Part shown: positions 3,398 through 49,414 of the stretch, piece by piece
How the letters are laid out: each line of letters opens with the position of its first letter
How positions within the stretch are numbered: the first letter of the stretch is position 1
Origin: an uncultured Roseobacter sp.
GTDB taxonomy: Bacteria > Pseudomonadota > Alphaproteobacteria > Rhodobacterales > Rhodobacteraceae
Length of the DNA: 64,000 bases
Assembly: GCF_947493125.1 (NCBI RefSeq)
Contig: NZ_CANLQB010000001.1
Coordinates: 186,001-250,000, forward strand
Direction: 5' to 3'
The notes under the pieces: generated by a model
What the model was told of the DNA's origin: nothing
What the model saw: only the letters and a program-made list of their open reading frames with translations
The model's database searches: none
Program-made: the position numbers and the translations under genes

Positions 3398-4323
3398 CGC
3401 AGATGCCTGACGTGCGGGGCCGCCTGACGCCCAACCGCGCGCTCAGCGATCTGACCTGGTTGCGCGTGGGCGGCCCGGCAGACTGGTTCTTTCAGCCCGC
3501 GGATCTCGACGACCTCCGCCAGTTCCTGGCCGCGCTGCCGGACGAGGCGGCGGTGTTTCCCATGGGCGTCGGCTCCAACCTGATTGTGCGCGACGGGGGG
3601 CTGCGCGCGGTGGTAATCCGGCTCGGGCGCGGGTTCAACGGCACTGAGATTGATGATGCCCGTGTCACGGCCGGGGCGGCTGCGCTGGATGCGCATGTGG
3701 CCCGGAAAGCGGCGGATGCGGGCCGCGACCTGACCTTTCTGCGCACGATCCCCGGCAGTATTGGCGGGGCCCTGCGCATGAATGCGGGGTGTTATGGCAG
3801 CTACATCGCGGATGTTCTGGTCGAAGCGCAGGCGGTGACGCGCAGCGGGGAGGTCACAACGCTGACACCTGAGGATCTGGACTTCGCCTACCGGCATAGC
3901 GCGCTGCCTGACGGCTGGGTGTTGACCGCGGCCACTTTCGACGCGCCTGCCGGTGATCCGGGCGCTCTGCATGCCCGCATGGACGAGCAGCTTGCCAAGC
4001 GCGACGCCACCCAGCCGACAAAGGACCGCAGCGCGGGCTCCACCTTCCGCAACCCGGCGGGATTTTCCTCGACAGGCCGGACGGACGATGTGCATGACCT
4101 GAAGGCCTGGAAGGTGATCGACGACGCCGGATTGCGCGGCGCGCGGCAGGGCGGGGCGCAGATGAGCGAGAAGCACCCCAACTTCCTGATCAATACCGGT
4201 GACGCCACGGCCGCAGACCTGGAGGGATTGGGCGAGGCGGTCCGAAAAAAGGTTTACGCTCAAAGCGGGATCACGCTAGAATGGGAAATCATGCGCGTGG
4301 GTGAGGCTGGCCCCGTGGATTAA
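3394..4323 (+). CDS. murB: UDP-N-acetylenolpyruvoylglucosamine reductase MurB
   Basis: MurB is the FAD enzyme that reduces UDP-GlcNAc-enolpyruvate to UDP-MurNAc with NADPH, the second committed step of peptidoglycan synthesis. The ATG at 3394, overlapping the preceding stop, gives 309 residues, typical of the shorter MurB type. FAD-binding [11 protein letters not shown] and [13 protein letters not shown], the segment [19 protein letters not shown], the AGSTFRNP motif carrying the catalytic Ser, and [10 protein letters not shown] are all present. The C-terminal LEWEIMRVG supplies the conserved Glu. The stop codon forms part of a CtrA-type box. Confidence 0.97.
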
Positions 4324-4335
4324 CGGCGCGTTAAC
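4320..4335. promoter_or_regulatory. CtrA-type binding site, full consensus TTAA-N7-TTAAC
   Basis: TTAA at 4320-4323 (sharing the murB stop), exactly seven bases, then TTAAC at 4331-4335. This is an exact match to the full CtrA consensus of alphaproteobacteria. It opens the only sizeable gap (120 bp) in the first half of the division cluster, about 110 bp before the ddl start, where a promoter for ddl-ftsQA would be expected. Binding is inferred, not shown. Confidence 0.55.
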
Positions 4336-4443
4336 CACGATCCACCCAGACTGCGGGCAAAAGAGAGACGGTGAACCGGCGCAAAAGCCGGACGCATGAG
4401 GCAAAATCAAGGGCACGGAAAGGCCCGGCAAAGAGGCACGAAC

Positions 4444-5364
4444 GTGGGTCAGTCGAGCAGGACACCCCAACGCGTGGCGGTATTGATGGGCGGCCCTTCG
4501 GCGGAGCGCGAAGTGTCGCTGTCGAGCGGGACAGCCTGCGCTGCCGCCCTGCGGGGAGAAGGATACGAGGTGGTCGAGGTCGATGCGGGCCCCGACCTCT
4601 GTTCCGTTCTGGCCGATCTCAAGCCCGACGCCATCCTGAACTGCCTGCACGGCCGCTGGGGCGAGGATGGCTGCGTCCAGGGTCTGCTCGAATGGGTCGG
4701 TATCCCCTATTCCCACTCCGGTGTTCTGTCCTCCGCGCTGGCCATGGACAAGCAGCGCAGCAAGGCAGCCTTTGCCGCCGCTGGCCTGCCCGTGGTCAGC
4801 AGCGTCATGGCGCCCGCGAACGAGGTCCGCACCCGCCACGTGATGAAGCCGCCCTATGTGGTGAAGCCCAACAACGAAGGCTCCTCGGTCGGCATCTATC
4901 TGGTGCACGACTGGGCCAATGGCCCACCGCAGCTTTCCAAAGATATGCCCGCGCAGGTGATGGTCGAAACCTACGCCCCGGGGCGCGAACTGACGACCAC
5001 AGTGATGGGCGACCGGGCGCTGACGGTGACCGATATCCTCACCGAGGGCTGGTACGACTATGACGCCAAGTACAAGCCCGGCGGCTCGCGCCACGTGGTG
5101 CCAGCCGATGTGCCGTCCGAAATCTTCGATCTCTGCATGGACTATGCCCTGCGTGCGCATGAGGCTTTGGGCTGCCGCGGTGTCAGCCGCACCGATTTCC
5201 GCTGGGACGAAGCTCGGGGCACAGACGGCCTGATCCTGCTCGAGACCAATACGCAACCCGGCATGACCGAAACCTCGCTCACCCCCGAACAGGCGCAGGC
5301 CTGCGGCATGAGCTTTGGCCAGCTTTGCGCCTGGATGGTGGAGGACGCCTCATGCGATCGCTGA
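4444..5364 (+). CDS. ddl: D-alanine--D-alanine ligase
   Basis: This ATP-grasp ligase makes the D-Ala-D-Ala dipeptide used by MurF. I choose the GTG at 4444 because AGAGG lies seven bases upstream and the resulting 306-residue protein has a normal N-terminus (VAVLMGGPSAEREVSLSSG near residue 12). An ATG at 4396 in the same frame would add 16 residues of non-conserved sequence. Motifs visible: LHGRWGEDGCVQGLLE, YSHSGVLSSALAMDK, VVKPNNEGSSVGI and the C-terminal LLETNTQPGMTETSL. It follows the CtrA-type box and overlaps ftsQ by 13 bases. Confidence 0.95.
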   Translation: MGQSSRTPQRVAVLMGGPSAEREVSLSSGTACAAALRGEGYEVVEVDAGPDLCSVLADLKPDAILNCLHGRWGEDGCVQGLLEWVGIPYSHSGVLSSALAMDKQRSKAAFAAAGLPVVSSVMAPANEVRTRHVMKPPYVVKPNNEGSSVGIYLVHDWANGPPQLSKDMPAQVMVETYAPGRELTTTVMGDRALTVTDILTEGWYDYDAKYKPGGSRHVVPADVPSEIFDLCMDYALRAHEALGCRGVSRTDFRWDEARGTDGLILLETNTQPGMTETSLTPEQAQACGMSFGQLCAWMVEDASCDR

Positions 5365-33907: not shown

Positions 33908-34006
33908 GGCAGTTTGCAATTGCGCACAGGTCTTTGCGCGGTCATGGACTGTTAACCCGGCCCGTGCGAGGGTATGGTCTCGCAAAGAGATCTGAAGGGA
34001 AGAGCA

Positions 34007-34783
34007 ATGGCGCGGCCGGTCGTTGGCATCATCTGCAACCGCTATCTGATCAATGACGAATACCCGGTGCATGCGGGCGGGACGATGAACTCCGACGCGA
34101 TCGCCGGAGTGGCGGAGTGTGTGCCGATGATTGTGCCGTCCAATCCGGATTACGTGTCGATCAACGATCTGTTGGAGGCCTGTGACGGCTTCCTTCTGAC
34201 CGGGGGCCGGCCCAATGTGCATCCCGAGGAGTATGGCGAGGAGGCGACCGCCGCGCATGGCGACTTTGATCGCGCGCGCGATGCGATTGCGCTGCCGCTG
34301 ATCCGCGCCTGTGTGGACCGCGGGCAGCCGTTCCTGGGCATCTGCCGGGGCTTTCAGGAGGTGAATGTGGCTCTGGGTGGCTCCTTGCATCCTGAAATCC
34401 GGGACCTGCCGGGGCGGATGAATCACCGGATGCCGCCCGATGGCACGCTGCAGGAGAAGTTCGAGAACCGCCATACCGTCTCCTTCACCGAGGGCGGCGT
34501 GTTTCATCGCCTGATGGGCGCGCAGGAGGTGGTGACCAACACGCTGCACGGTCAGGGGATCAAGCAGGCCGCGCCGCGCGTCGTGGTTGATGGGGTGGCA
34601 CCCGATGGCACGCCCGAGGCAATCTTCATCAAGGATGCGCCGGGTTTCACCCTCTCGGTCCAGTGGCACCCCGAGTACCAGGCGGCCGAGGACCCGGTCT
34701 CGCGCCCGCTCTTTGCCGCCTTTGGCCGCGCCGCGCAGGCCTGGTCGCAGGGGCGGCGGCTGACGCCGGCGCAGGTAGCCTAG
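34007..34783 (+). CDS. Gamma-glutamyl-gamma-aminobutyrate hydrolase-like (C26) protein
   Basis: This 258-residue class I glutamine-amidotransferase-fold hydrolase resembles PuuD, which splits gamma-Glu-GABA in putrescine breakdown. The nucleophile Cys is in LGICRGFQEVNVALGGSLH (near residue 110) and the His/Glu pair in SVQWHPEYQ near 217. DGFLLTGGRPNVHPEEYGE is the typical oxyanion-side segment. The ATG at 34007 follows GAAGGGA. No other puu genes are nearby, so the true substrate is open. Confidence 0.85.
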   Translation: MARPVVGIICNRYLINDEYPVHAGGTMNSDAIAGVAECVPMIVPSNPDYVSINDLLEACDGFLLTGGRPNVHPEEYGEEATAAHGDFDRARDAIALPLIRACVDRGQPFLGICRGFQEVNVALGGSLHPEIRDLPGRMNHRMPPDGTLQEKFENRHTVSFTEGGVFHRLMGAQEVVTNTLHGQGIKQAAPRVVVDGVAPDGTPEAIFIKDAPGFTLSVQWHPEYQAAEDPVSRPLFAAFGRAAQAWSQGRRLTPAQVA

Positions 34784-35328
34784 GCGCTTTCGGGCGCCGT
34801 CGTTTTCAACCCCATCTCGCTGAATTTCGGGGGGCGTGCCGGAGTGGCGCGCAGATGCGCGGTGGCCAGATCGCGGTGCAGAGAGGTCCAGCTCCAATCG
34901 GTGGGACGCTCCACCAGGCCCGCCTCGACCGGTGCGGTATGGATGAGGCGCCGGTGCAGCATCAAATCGTGGGCCGAGCGGATGCGATGTTCCCAGAAGC
35001 GGCGCTGCCAGATGCCCTTCTCCTTGCGCAGGATTTCTGTGGCTGTCCGGTCCTCCGGCGGTGGGAGCGCGCGGGAGAACCGGCTCTTCAGAAAGCTCCA
35101 GCGGGTGCTGAAGTCGGCCTCGCCCTCTGGCAAAGTCCAGATCGTATGGATCGCGGCGGGCAGGATGACGATGTCGTCGATGCTGAACGGGTAGCGACTG
35201 ATGGTCTGGCGCATGGCGCGGCGCAGCAGGTCAACCTGATCGGTCAGCAGGGTGCTGCGCGGGTCGACCAAGCGCGCGGTAAAGAAGAAGGTGCCGCCGG
35301 GTGTTTTTGAACGGATCTGATGTCCCAT
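34780..35328 (-). CDS. REP-associated tyrosine transposase (RAYT)-like protein with degenerate catalytic motifs
   Basis: This 182-residue protein clearly belongs to the RAYT/Y1 family: GTFFFTARLVDPRSTLL at the start, IWTLPEGEADFSTRWSFLKSRF in the middle, WQRRFWEHRIRSAHD and APVEAGLVERPTDWSWTSLHRD at the end. The HUH motif, normally like PDHMH, reads PAAIH, so the first His is Ala. The region that normally carries the catalytic Tyr (like DYIxxNP) reads RRLIHTAP; the only Tyr in the whole protein is far upstream, in SRYPF. It is full length with no frameshift. It should not cut DNA but could still bind REP hairpins. Two REPs lie 45 and 97 bases upstream. Confidence 0.88.
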   Translation of the reverse strand: MGHQIRSKTPGGTFFFTARLVDPRSTLLTDQVDLLRRAMRQTISRYPFSIDDIVILPAAIHTIWTLPEGEADFSTRWSFLKSRFSRALPPPEDRTATEILRKEKGIWQRRFWEHRIRSAHDLMLHRRLIHTAPVEAGLVERPTDWSWTSLHRDLATAHLRATPARPPKFSEMGLKTTAPESA

Positions 35329-35372
35329 GCCGCGAGGCTAGCCACGGCATGGTTAAGGAAGGCTGAATCGCG

Positions 35373-35406
35373 GGCAGGGGTGGCCTGAAAGCCCACCCCA
35401 CCTGCC
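35373..35406 (+). repeat. REP-type palindrome A
   Basis: A 34-base imperfect palindrome: GGCAGG and GGTGG pair with CCACC and CCTGCC around a central CCTGAAAG. Its 19-base core (35379-35397) is the exact reverse complement of the cores of copies B and D. It lies upstream of the RAYT-like gene. Confidence 0.85.
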
Positions 35407-35424
35407 AGCACAGACCGCAGAACA

Positions 35425-35458
35425 GGCAGGTGCGGTGGGCTTTCAGGCCACCGCCTGG
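35425..35458 (-). repeat. REP-type palindrome B, opposite orientation to A
   Basis: A 34-base copy facing A across 18 bases, so A and B form a paired element like a BIME. The core GGTGGGCTTTCAGGCCACC (35434-35452) matches copy D exactly. It ends two bases before the stop of the SDR gene at 35461. Confidence 0.85.
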
Positions 35459-35460
35459 TA

Positions 35461-36213
35461 CTATATTTGCCCGCCCGCGATCTCGATGGCCTGTCCGTTC
35501 ACGCTCTCCGACCCGTCCGAAACCAGCCAGAGCGCCGCTGCGGCGACCTCCTCGGGCGCGATCAGGCGGTTGTGGCGGTTGGCCGAGACCATCATTGCGC
35601 GCGCCTTGTCCGCGCTGACGCCCGCGCGCGCGGAGATCGAGGCCGTGTTGCGGGTCACGATGTCGGTGTCCACATAGGCGGGGCAGAGCGTGTTGAAGGT
35701 GATGGGCTTGCCGATATAATCCTCGCTGAGGGCGCGGATCAGCCCGACCATGCCGTGTTTGGAGGCCGTATAGCAGGCCGCGCCCGGCAGCCCGCGCAGA
35801 CCGGCGACGGAGGAGACCGCGATCACGCGCCCCCAGTCGGTCTCGCGCATGGACTGCAGCGCCTCGCGGATCGTCAGGAAGGCGCCGTCGAGGTTGGTGG
35901 CCATCATGTCGCGCCAGAAGTCCAGATCGGTCTTATGCAGCGCGCGGCCTTCGGCGATGCCGGCGTTCGCGACGCAGATCTGGATCGGGCCGCGTGCCTC
36001 GACCGCTGCGGCGGTGGTCTCGACCACCCGCGCCTCGTCGCGCACATCCATGCTCATGCCGACGATGCCGTCTCCGGCCGCGGCATCGAGCGCTGCCTGC
36101 CTGCGGCCCGTGATCGTCACCGCCGCGCCGCGTGCGGCCAACGCGCGGGCGATGGCCAGCCCGATGCCGCTGCCGCCTCCCGTGACCAGCGCGTGTTTGC
36201 CCTCAAGCTCCAT
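35461..36213 (-). CDS. Short-chain dehydrogenase (3-hydroxybutyrate dehydrogenase-like)
   Basis: A 250-residue classical SDR: cofactor loop TGGGSGIGLAIARALAARG near residue 10, NAGIAEG near 83, catalytic Tyr/Lys in ACYTASKHGMVGLIRALSEDY near 146, then NTLCPAYVDTDIVTRNTASI. The last segment resembles 3-hydroxybutyrate dehydrogenases, but the substrate is unproven. I start at the ATG at 36213 (MELEGKHALVTGG); further upstream the frame is only Arg-rich filler. REP copy B abuts its 3' end. Confidence 0.88.
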   Translation of the reverse strand: MELEGKHALVTGGGSGIGLAIARALAARGAAVTITGRRQAALDAAAGDGIVGMSMDVRDEARVVETTAAAVEARGPIQICVANAGIAEGRALHKTDLDFWRDMMATNLDGAFLTIREALQSMRETDWGRVIAVSSVAGLRGLPGAACYTASKHGMVGLIRALSEDYIGKPITFNTLCPAYVDTDIVTRNTASISARAGVSADKARAMMVSANRHNRLIAPEEVAAAALWLVSDGSESVNGQAIEIAGGQI

Positions 36214-36338
36214 GTCTTGCCCCTCCCGCTCTGTGCCTCCCGACCTTAGCGGCGGCCTGCCGCGACACAAGCTGCCGGATGGCTTGTCTCCGCGTCGAGC
36301 AGGGCGTAGCCTTGGCCCAACCATCTGGAGGGTGAGCG

Positions 36339-36719
36339 ATGCAGCGTGTGCGCGGGTTCGGTGGCTTTTTCTTTCGGGCCAGGGATCCCAAGGCTCTGGC
36401 CGCCTGGTACGCGCGACATCTGGGCATCTCGGAAGTGCCTCAGGACTATGAAAGCCCGGTCTGGACGCAGGAGGCGGGCCCCACGGTCTTTGCGCCCTTT
36501 GCCGCGGACACGGAGTATTTCGGCAACGCGGAGAAGCAGTGGATGCTGAACTTCCGCGTCGATGATCTCGATGCGATGGCAGACCAACTGCGCGCAGCGG
36601 GCATCACCGTCGACATGCACCCGGAGGAGCTGCCGAACGGGCGGTTTGCGCGGCTCTATGATCCCGAGGGCAACCCCATCGAACTTTGGGAGCCTCGGTC
36701 TGCGGAACCGGGGCCGTGA
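36339..36719 (+). CDS. VOC (glyoxalase/bleomycin-resistance-fold) protein
   Basis: A 126-residue protein with the vicinal-oxygen-chelate fold: GGFFFRARDPKALAAWYARHLGI at the start and FARLYDPEGNPIELWEPRS at the end, which carries the usual metal-ligand Glu. GGAGGGTGAGCG precedes the ATG. The family covers glyoxalases, dioxygenases and resistance proteins, so no substrate can be named. It overlaps the following membrane-protein gene by four bases (GTGA). Confidence 0.88.
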   Translation: MQRVRGFGGFFFRARDPKALAAWYARHLGISEVPQDYESPVWTQEAGPTVFAPFAADTEYFGNAEKQWMLNFRVDDLDAMADQLRAAGITVDMHPEELPNGRFARLYDPEGNPIELWEPRSAEPGP

Positions 36720-49386: not shown

Positions 49387-49414
49387 CAGGTGGGGTGGGC
49401 TTTCAGGCCACCCG
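49387..49414 (-). repeat. REP-type palindrome D
   Basis: A 28-base copy whose 19-base core (49394-49412) is identical to copy B. It lies in the 61-base gap between the M20 gene and the flavoprotein gene, ending 16 bases before the latter's start, so it sits where a ribosome site would be expected. Confidence 0.85.

What the first reader, a model, noticed from the sequence alone, without database searches (positions are those of the whole stretch)
34780..35328. Full-length RAYT-like protein without catalytic His or Tyr
RAYTs mobilise or process REP palindromes using an HUH motif and a Tyr. Here the first His is Ala (PAAIH) and the Tyr region reads RRLIHTAP; the sole Tyr of the protein is far upstream. 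There is no frameshift, and the surrounding family motifs (FWEH, STRW, KSRF) are intact. This points to selection for a non-cutting role, such as REP binding, rather than simple decay.
Basis: partly seen in the sequence, partly recalled or inferred. Interest (0 to 1): 0.7.

Follow-up and report, generated by a model that had tools for sequence, protein, structure and literature searches.

The report
Dead transposase guarding frozen DNA hairpins
A marine bacterium carries a transposase-like protein that has lost its cutting residues yet is kept by selection together with about fifty DNA hairpin sites fixed in place, which suggests that it was turned into a protein that binds hairpins and no longer moves DNA.

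Summary
The minus-strand ORF 35328-34780 is an intact 182-aa RAYT (NCBIfam REP_Tyr_transpos, 146.6 bits) with Ala59 for the first HUH His, Leu128 for the Tyr and Ala132 for the metal-binding Asn. It is not decaying. All 11 orthologues found in 19 genus genomes lack these three residues. They fall in a 33-row clade (support 100/96), 32 rows of which lack the Tyr. Of 156 core columns only five separate this clade from 81 other RAYTs: the three catalytic ones and two within eight residues of the Tyr. Three tag-contacting residues are mostly kept. dN/dS is 0.055-0.19 in close pairs. In 20 rows from several genera the gene keeps one locus. Family searches found no other RAYT or Y1 transposase in the genome, yet it holds 68 REPs (at most 2 mismatches). 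They look immobile: 41 of 48 REP loci are at the same place in a relative at dS about 1.3. The hairpin is 96% identical there, flanks 57-60%, with compensatory stem changes. 42 of 69 copies lie antisense, within 21 nt after a stop codon. Best reading: a domesticated, non-cutting REP-hairpin binder; binding and role are inferred. Against a strict link, three orthologues persist in genomes with 0-3 such REPs.

The parts
34780..35328 (-). Catalytically dead RAYT (dRAYT), 182 aa, intact ORF
   Evidence: NF047646 146.6 bits, cutoff 80; profile A1 finds PDB 4er8_A, E 5.9e-44; AlphaFold mean pLDDT 91.5
35152..35154 (-). Codon 59, Ala in place of the first His of HUH
   Evidence: His in 80 of 81 other RAYTs, 4 of 33 in the clade
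35146..35148 (-). Codon 61, second His of HUH, kept
   Evidence: His in 32 of 33 clade rows (Gln in G010)
34945..34947 (-). Codon 128, Leu in place of the catalytic Tyr
   Evidence: Tyr in 76 of 81 others, 1 of 33 in the clade
34933..34935 (-). Codon 132, Ala in place of the metal-binding Asn
   Evidence: Asn in 75 of 81 others; Ala 32 and Ser 1 of 33 in the clade
35086..35088 (-). Codon 81, Lys on the helix that binds REP in E. coli TnpAREP; invariant in the set (the E. coli bulge contact K82 aligns with codon 82, Ser here)
   Evidence: Lys81 in 33 of 33 and 81 of 81; no Lys listed at residue 82, mostly small residues; contact from PMC8266576 section 26
34978..35007 (-). Codons 108-117 (Q108, E113, R117) aligned with E. 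coli residues 95, 100 and 104 (tag contacts), kept
   Evidence: Q 32, E/D 32, R 29 of 33 clade rows
35379..35397 (-). REP arm 1 of the REPIN upstream of the rayt gene; tag complement ACCTG at 35400-35404
35434..35452 (+). REP arm 2 with tag CAGGT at 35427-35431; 8 nt from the stop codon of the SDR gene
49394..49412 (+). Single REP (G000:C1:235394), orthologous to G001:C6:53266
35461..36324 (-). SDR dehydrogenase gene flanking the REPIN and rayt; conserved neighbour
33974..34783 (+). Peptidase_C26/GATase gene on the other side of rayt; conserved neighbour

Best explanation
This is a domesticated RAYT that lost DNA cleavage but kept REP recognition. Shown: loss of the first His, the Tyr and the Asn; purifying selection; an old, shared locus; no other RAYT in its genome by family search; REP loci held in place between relatives with conserved hairpin and tag and with compensatory changes. 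Inferred: the protein cannot cut; it binds the unit 5'-CAGGT-NN-GGTGGGCTTTCAGGCCACC-3' as a folded single strand, at sites of which most lie just after stop codons and antisense to the gene. It would act there as a roadblock, cap or insulator at gene 3' ends instead of as a transposase. It may regulate its own gene through the REPIN in its upstream region. The class of role (non-cutting hairpin binder) is the commitment here; the 3'-end function is the most likely specific form (about 0.4).
For: 33-row clade 100/96. Five differentiating columns of 156: three catalytic and two within eight residues of the Tyr; tag-contact residues Q108, E113, R117 kept in 32, 32 (E or D) and 29 of 33. dN/dS. 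No PF01797 match and one NF047646 match in G000. REP counts 24-68 in 8 of 11 genomes with the gene, at most 2 in the 8 without. Position conservation 41 of 48. Hairpin 0.962 and tag 0.942 against 0.597/0.572 beside them, n = 57. Pair 3/17 changed in 15 of 57 copies and stayed paired in all 15; pair -1/+20 Watson-Crick in 65 of 68 G000 copies, shuffled maximum 40. Antisense stop codon within 21 nt for 42 of 69 copies against 14.4 expected. At least one of six tested neighbours beside the gene in 20 of 20 rows of the subclade.
Against: G004 and G014 keep the protein (their pair dN/dS 0.098) with 0 REPs of this type, and G016 with 3. L012, L013, L017, L021, L074 and L075 showed no repeated REP-like hairpin beside the gene that I would call a REPIN. 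No binding data. The E. coli bulge contact K82 aligns with Ser82, so that contact is not the same, and the kept residues may be kept for folding. REPs just after stop codons are known in E. coli without reference to RAYT binding (PMC12306157 passages), so REPs could be selected for mRNA reasons. One clade member (L090) has Tyr at the catalytic position. In G001 to G013, 4 of 22 assessable loci are empty. The control with an active RAYT was weak.
Confidence: 0.68

Rival explanations
1. The REPs are selected for an mRNA role of their own (hairpin just after the stop codon, ribosome stalling or 3'-end stability as reported for E. coli REPs), and the dead RAYT is kept for an unrelated function.
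For: 38 of 69 G000 copies lie within 15 nt after a stop codon, the distance reported for translational down-regulation in E. coli (PMC12306157 passages; original work Liang, Rudd and Deutscher 2015, recalled). The protein persists in G004, G014 and G016 with 0-3 REPs.
Against: The CAGGT tag outside the stem is nearly as constrained as the hairpin in G000-G001, which a plain mRNA hairpin does not need. REPs are nearly absent from all 8 genus genomes without the gene. Imperfect pairs are mostly G.T on the REP strand, so A.C on the mRNA strand (30 against 6; 23 of the 30 come from one pair position in two related genomes).
Confidence: 0.21
2. The protein still processes REP DNA with another nucleophile or with a partner nuclease.
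For: The second His is kept in 32 of 33. Many REPs remain identical copies (56 exact in G000).
Against: Positions are shared between relatives, so there is little sign of recent movement. Ligands His1 and Asn are both lost in the window protein. No Ser, Thr, Tyr or Cys near position 128 is shared by all clade rows (my reading of the motif rows). G010 lost the second His too.
Confidence: 0.06
3. Ordinary decay: an inactivated RAYT on the way out, with REPs as slow-decaying fossils.
For: 8 of 19 genus genomes lack the gene above the family cutoff and have at most 2 REPs, and G016 has 3.
Against: Open frame and dN/dS 0.055-0.19 in close pairs. Loss is shared by many genera. Hairpin and tag stay conserved while flanks are far diverged in G000-G013 (hairpin 0.966, tag 0.835, flanks 0.41).
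Confidence: 0.03

Closest known systems
RAYT / TnpAREP (E. coli TnpAREP, PDB 4er8; NCBIfam NF047646)
   Same: Same family by sequence, REPs in an inverted pair beside the gene, one copy per genome in the 11 genus genomes at the family cutoff, tag-contact residues mostly kept.
   Different: First His, Tyr and Asn of the active site lost; C-terminal Gly-Asp/Glu mostly missing (2 of 33 against 49 of 81); tag CAGGT-NN in place of GTAG in this genome; both REPs of the pair on one side of the gene; REPs mostly at the same places in relatives.
REPIN / REP populations (Pseudomonas, E. coli)
   Same: Imperfect palindrome with 5' tag, inverted pairs 55-56 bp apart, dozens of copies, mostly between genes.
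   Different: REPINs are described as replicated at low rates by RAYT (PMC8049555 passages); here no cutting RAYT was found and most copies are orthologous between relatives.
Catalytically dead nucleases used as binders (dCas9 analogy, recalled)
   Same: Would work like one: cleavage residues lost, binding residues kept.
   Different: Natural, HUH family, hairpin target; only an analogy.

Membership tests
RAYT (REP-associated tyrosine transposase) | Matches the family profile above cutoff | tested here: met
   146.6 bits, cutoff 80; 4er8_A E 5.9e-44
RAYT (REP-associated tyrosine transposase) | HUH motif with both His | tested here: not met
   Ala59, His61
RAYT (REP-associated tyrosine transposase) | Catalytic Tyr and Asn of the Y---NP motif | tested here: not met
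   Leu128, Ala132
[quoted passage not shown]
   an inverted pair at 35379-35452, but both copies upstream of the gene and not one on each side
RAYT (REP-associated tyrosine transposase) | Binds and cleaves single-stranded REP DNA | not testable with these tools
   needs EMSA and cleavage assay
REP / REPIN | Imperfect palindrome, many intergenic copies, 5' tag at the foot | tested here: met
   (1 of 48 G000 loci inside a predicted gene)
REP / REPIN | GTAG-type tetranucleotide tag | tested here: inconclusive
   GTAR in the G003 and G010 copies seen; CAGGTAR in nearly all G013/G008/G011 copies; CAGGT-NN in G000/G001/G007
REP / REPIN | Non-autonomous mobility | tested here: not met
   41 of 48 loci orthologous to G001, 2 empty, 5 not assessable

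The most novel reading that the evidence does not exclude
A natural dRAYT with a genome-wide, strand-specific hairpin regulon: a catalytically dead HUH transposase that recognises about 50 fixed tagged hairpin sites as folded single strands at gene 3' ends and controls transcript ends or read-through between neighbours. Site tag and protein would have co-evolved (GTAR, CAGGTAR, CAGGT-NN) after cleavage was lost.
Probability: 0.38. Interest if true: 0.85.

Novelty: new variant of a known kind. Interest (0 to 1): 0.72.

Why it matters
What RAYTs and REPs do for the host, apart from REP movement, is an open question. This lineage seems to have removed the cutting activity naturally and kept both protein and sites under selection, so a binding function can be studied without transposition. 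A published survey of the family retained only sequences with both HuH and Y motifs and took absence of core motifs as a sign of non-functional proteins (PMC6006769 section 8); members of this subfamily would have been excluded by that criterion.

Tried and rejected
First idea: REPs mobile although the RAYT is dead. Rejected by orthologous positions. Gene conversion or replacement of whole REPINs as the cause of identity: disfavoured between G000 and G001 because the stretch before the tag (the spacer in paired copies) and the stretch after the hairpin diverge alike (0.60/0.57) while hairpin and tag do not; not excluded for the deeper tag change between G003/G010 and G000. Intrinsic terminator: disfavoured by reading, since no T-run follows the hairpin on the gene strand (sequences); no terminator scan was run. 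Functional theme of REP-bearing genes: 37 G000 genes outside contig C1 were listed and 30 of them scanned in Pfam; 4 of the 30 had no match, the rest are mixed housekeeping and metabolic, no theme seen. Control with an active RAYT (Nioella L122 genome and G204): 3 of 8 exact REPs of G204 shared, flanks about 90-97% alike; weak, because only exact patterns were used and contigs are short. Fold search against PDB could not be run. One search read minus-strand loci in the wrong orientation; it was replaced. For one search the G013-to-G000 part of the output was cut and is not used.

Full report
What is there. The ORF is on the minus strand, 35328-34780, 182 aa. It matches NCBIfam REP_Tyr_transpos with 146.6 bits against a cutoff of 80, has no Pfam match at E up to 1, and a profile of it with ten relatives finds E. 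coli TnpAREP, PDB 4er8, at E 5.9e-44. AlphaFold gives mean pLDDT 91.5 from 55 sequences. Ala59, Leu128 and Ala132 stand where active relatives have His, Tyr and Asn; Tyr46 is the only Tyr. The genome (4.83 Mb, 32 contigs) has one match to this protein at E up to 1, one to NF047646 and none to the Y1 transposase family PF01797, so no active relative was found that could act in trans.

A conserved dead subfamily. 96 of 295 family genomes have some relative; sequence was cut out for 30 of their matches. A scan of genome contigs gave 580 relatives, of which the best 80 were kept. I classified 114 distinct proteins out of 120 loci (6 duplicates dropped): 72 have the full set HHYN. In a tree of 113 (one truncated row left out, the four catalytic columns removed) a clade of 33 has support 100/96; its named rows are Roseobacteraceae or Paracoccaceae, the unnamed ones of the window's family. 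32 of the 33 lack the Tyr. The exception L090 has a Tyr but has lost the Asn. Four rows outside the clade also lack the Tyr. Four clade members still have both His, so loss of Tyr and Asn seems older than loss of the first His (inference). Sampling leaned towards relatives of the query.

Only the active site changed. Of 156 core columns, those more than 80% one residue in the 81 other RAYTs and under 25% of it in the clade are five: 59, 128, 132, 135 and 136. The first three are the first His, the Tyr and the Asn; the other two lie seven and eight residues after the Tyr. 34 columns are at least 90% the same residue in both sets. PMC8266576 section 26 names Q95, D100 and R104 among the residues that contact the tag of the E. 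coli REP; residues aligned with positions 95, 100 (Glu in 4er8) and 104 are Gln in 32, Glu or Asp in 32 and Arg in 29 of 33. The same section says that K82 contacts a bulged base. That position is Ser82 here and mostly a small residue in both sets, with no Lys listed, while the neighbouring Lys81 is invariant, so this contact must differ in this whole branch of the family, dead or not. It also says that a C-terminal Gly-Glu contacts the last two bases of GTAG. A Gly-Asp/Glu within the last 14 residues is found in 2 of 33 clade members and 49 of 81 others. In this genome those two bases of the tag are variable. These agree but do not prove co-evolution, since G003 and G010 lack the tail and keep GTAR.

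Selection and locus. Core dN/dS (Nei-Gojobori) is 0.055 for G000-G007 (dS 0.80), 0.083 for G000-G001 (dS 1.33), 0.107-0.194 in the triad G013/G008/G011; eight pairs with a Tyr and finite dS give 0.064-0.209 and three dead pairs of other genera 0.094-0.133 (the script's heading calls the dead ones active by mistake). Wider genus pairs reach up to 0.29, and many have saturated dS. The C-terminal tail evolves fast. At least one of six neighbours (malate synthase, HbpS-like, GATase, SDR, the ORF at 36339 and pntA) was found beside the gene in 20 of 20 rows of one subclade, covering Sulfitobacter, Tateyamaria, Shimia, Aliishimia and the genus itself; of the other 13 rows one has pntA nearby and 12 none (loci of 2.9-8.5 kb). 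The interval between the SDR and malate synthase genes is 2017-2083 bp in 10 genomes with the gene (in G001 the malate synthase match is on another contig) and 1136-1881 bp in the 8 without.

The REPs. GGTGGGCTTTCAGGCCACC with up to 2 mismatches occurs 68 times in G000; other genomes with the gene have 65, 65, 54, 33, 33, 32, 24, 3, 0 and 0, those without have 0-2. Fisher p for at least 20 copies is 0.003, with no correction for kinship. G000 has 56 exact copies and none of the backwards control pattern. Pairs are in the order minus, plus in all 51 paired loci of G000, G001, G013, G011 and in the one of G007, with starts 55-56 bp apart in 20 of 21 G000 pairs. The unit includes a tag: CAGGT 3 to 7 bases before the hairpin in 66 of 68 G000, 65 of 65 G001, 28 of 32 G013 and 20 of 21 G011 copies, although the tag was not part of the search pattern.

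They do not seem to move. I fetched about 0.96 Mb each round the REPs of G000 and G001, 0.46 Mb of G013 and 0.28 Mb of G011. Of 48 REP loci in G000, 41 have a REP at the same place in G001, 2 are empty, and 5 have no matching sequence in what I fetched. In reverse, 41 of 47, 2 empty, 4 none. G000 to G013: 23 of 48, 2 empty, 23 none. G001 to G013: 18 of 47, 4 empty, 25 none. G013 to G001: 19 of 28, 2 empty, 7 none. G013 to G011: 15 of 28, 13 none. G011 to G013 and G011 to G000: 15 of 17 each. For G003, G010 and G016, 7 of 8 fetched loci match a REP of G000, G001, G013 or G011.

They are constrained. At orthologous places G000-G001 (57 copies; 2 more had no counterpart in the same orientation) the hairpin is 0.962 identical, the tag stretch 0.942, upstream 0.597, downstream 0.572; G000-G013 (26 copies, 8 more without counterpart) 0.966, 0.835, 0.415, 0.408. 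In G000-G001, 56 of 57 hairpins but 8 and 9 of 57 flank windows keep 16 of 19 bases. Base pair 3/17 differs in 15 of 57 copies, 11 times on both sides, and stays a standard or G.T pair in all 15. Pair -1/+20 is Watson-Crick in 65 of 68 G000 copies (63 of 65 in G001), shuffled mean 28.9, maximum 40 for G000. Against this, in G013 and G011 that pair shows no Watson-Crick excess over shuffles. Over the stem pairs counted, G.T on the REP strand occurs 30 times and A.C 6 times, which favours folding of the REP strand; 23 of the 30 are one position in two related genomes.

Where they lie. With a home-made gene finder (approximate), 42 of 69 G000 copies lie antisense within 21 nt after a stop codon, 14.4 expected for uniform placement in the same gaps; G001 44 of 68 against 15.6; G013 16 of 33 against 8.4; G011 11 of 21 against 7.5. 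In the window one arm is 8 nt past the stop of the SDR gene, and the REPIN lies between that gene and rayt. REPs within 15 nt of stop codons are reported to stall ribosomes in E. coli (PMC12306157, passages), so the location alone is not new.

What speaks against a strict link. G004 and G014 keep the protein with 0 such REPs and G016 with 3. A search for the tag with a loose hairpin found 0, 0 and 1 there, but it also found 0 in G003, whose 54 REPs bear another tag in the copies seen, so it says little. They may use another REP or the protein may do something else. REPs and gene are both missing from 8 genomes, but I had no species tree, so this may be few events.

Literature. Searches of the held library listed no paper whose title or shown abstract describes a RAYT subfamily without His and Tyr; I saw passages or single sections of PMC6006769, PMC8266576, PMC8049555, PMC12306157 and PMC2817692 only. 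PMC2817692 states that the catalytic residues are conserved in the RAYTs it aligned. Most subscription papers are not held, and the 4er8 structure paper (its DOI recalled) was not, so absence from print is not established.

Verdict. The evidence points to a domesticated, non-cutting hairpin-binding RAYT with a fixed set of sites; binding, target strand (DNA or RNA) and physiological role remain to be measured.

Noticed in passing
L083 (Maritimibacter MAG), around the active-type RAYT at 4001-4528: REP-like GGTGCGCATTCATGCGCACC with 11 matches (up to 2 mismatches), nine of them in a regular array within about 600 bp downstream of the RAYT.
   Followed up: no
L090 4001-4525 (Flavimaricola MAG): Clade member with HUH and Tyr but Asn to Ala; either an intermediate or a regained Tyr.
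   Followed up: no
G003:C1 and C2: Ten Y1_Tnp (PF01797) matches, some partial or with stops, in a genome that also has the dead RAYT and 54 REPs.
   Followed up: no
window 35329-35370, upstream of rayt: A TTAACC...CTAG block just upstream of the start codon, also seen in most genus orthologues, possibly the rayt promoter (reading).
   Followed up: no
L007, L008, L043, L046 against L001: REP tag differs by lineage (GTAR, CAGGTAR, CAGGT-NN) although several of these REP loci are orthologous: a concerted change of site sequence.
   Followed up: partly
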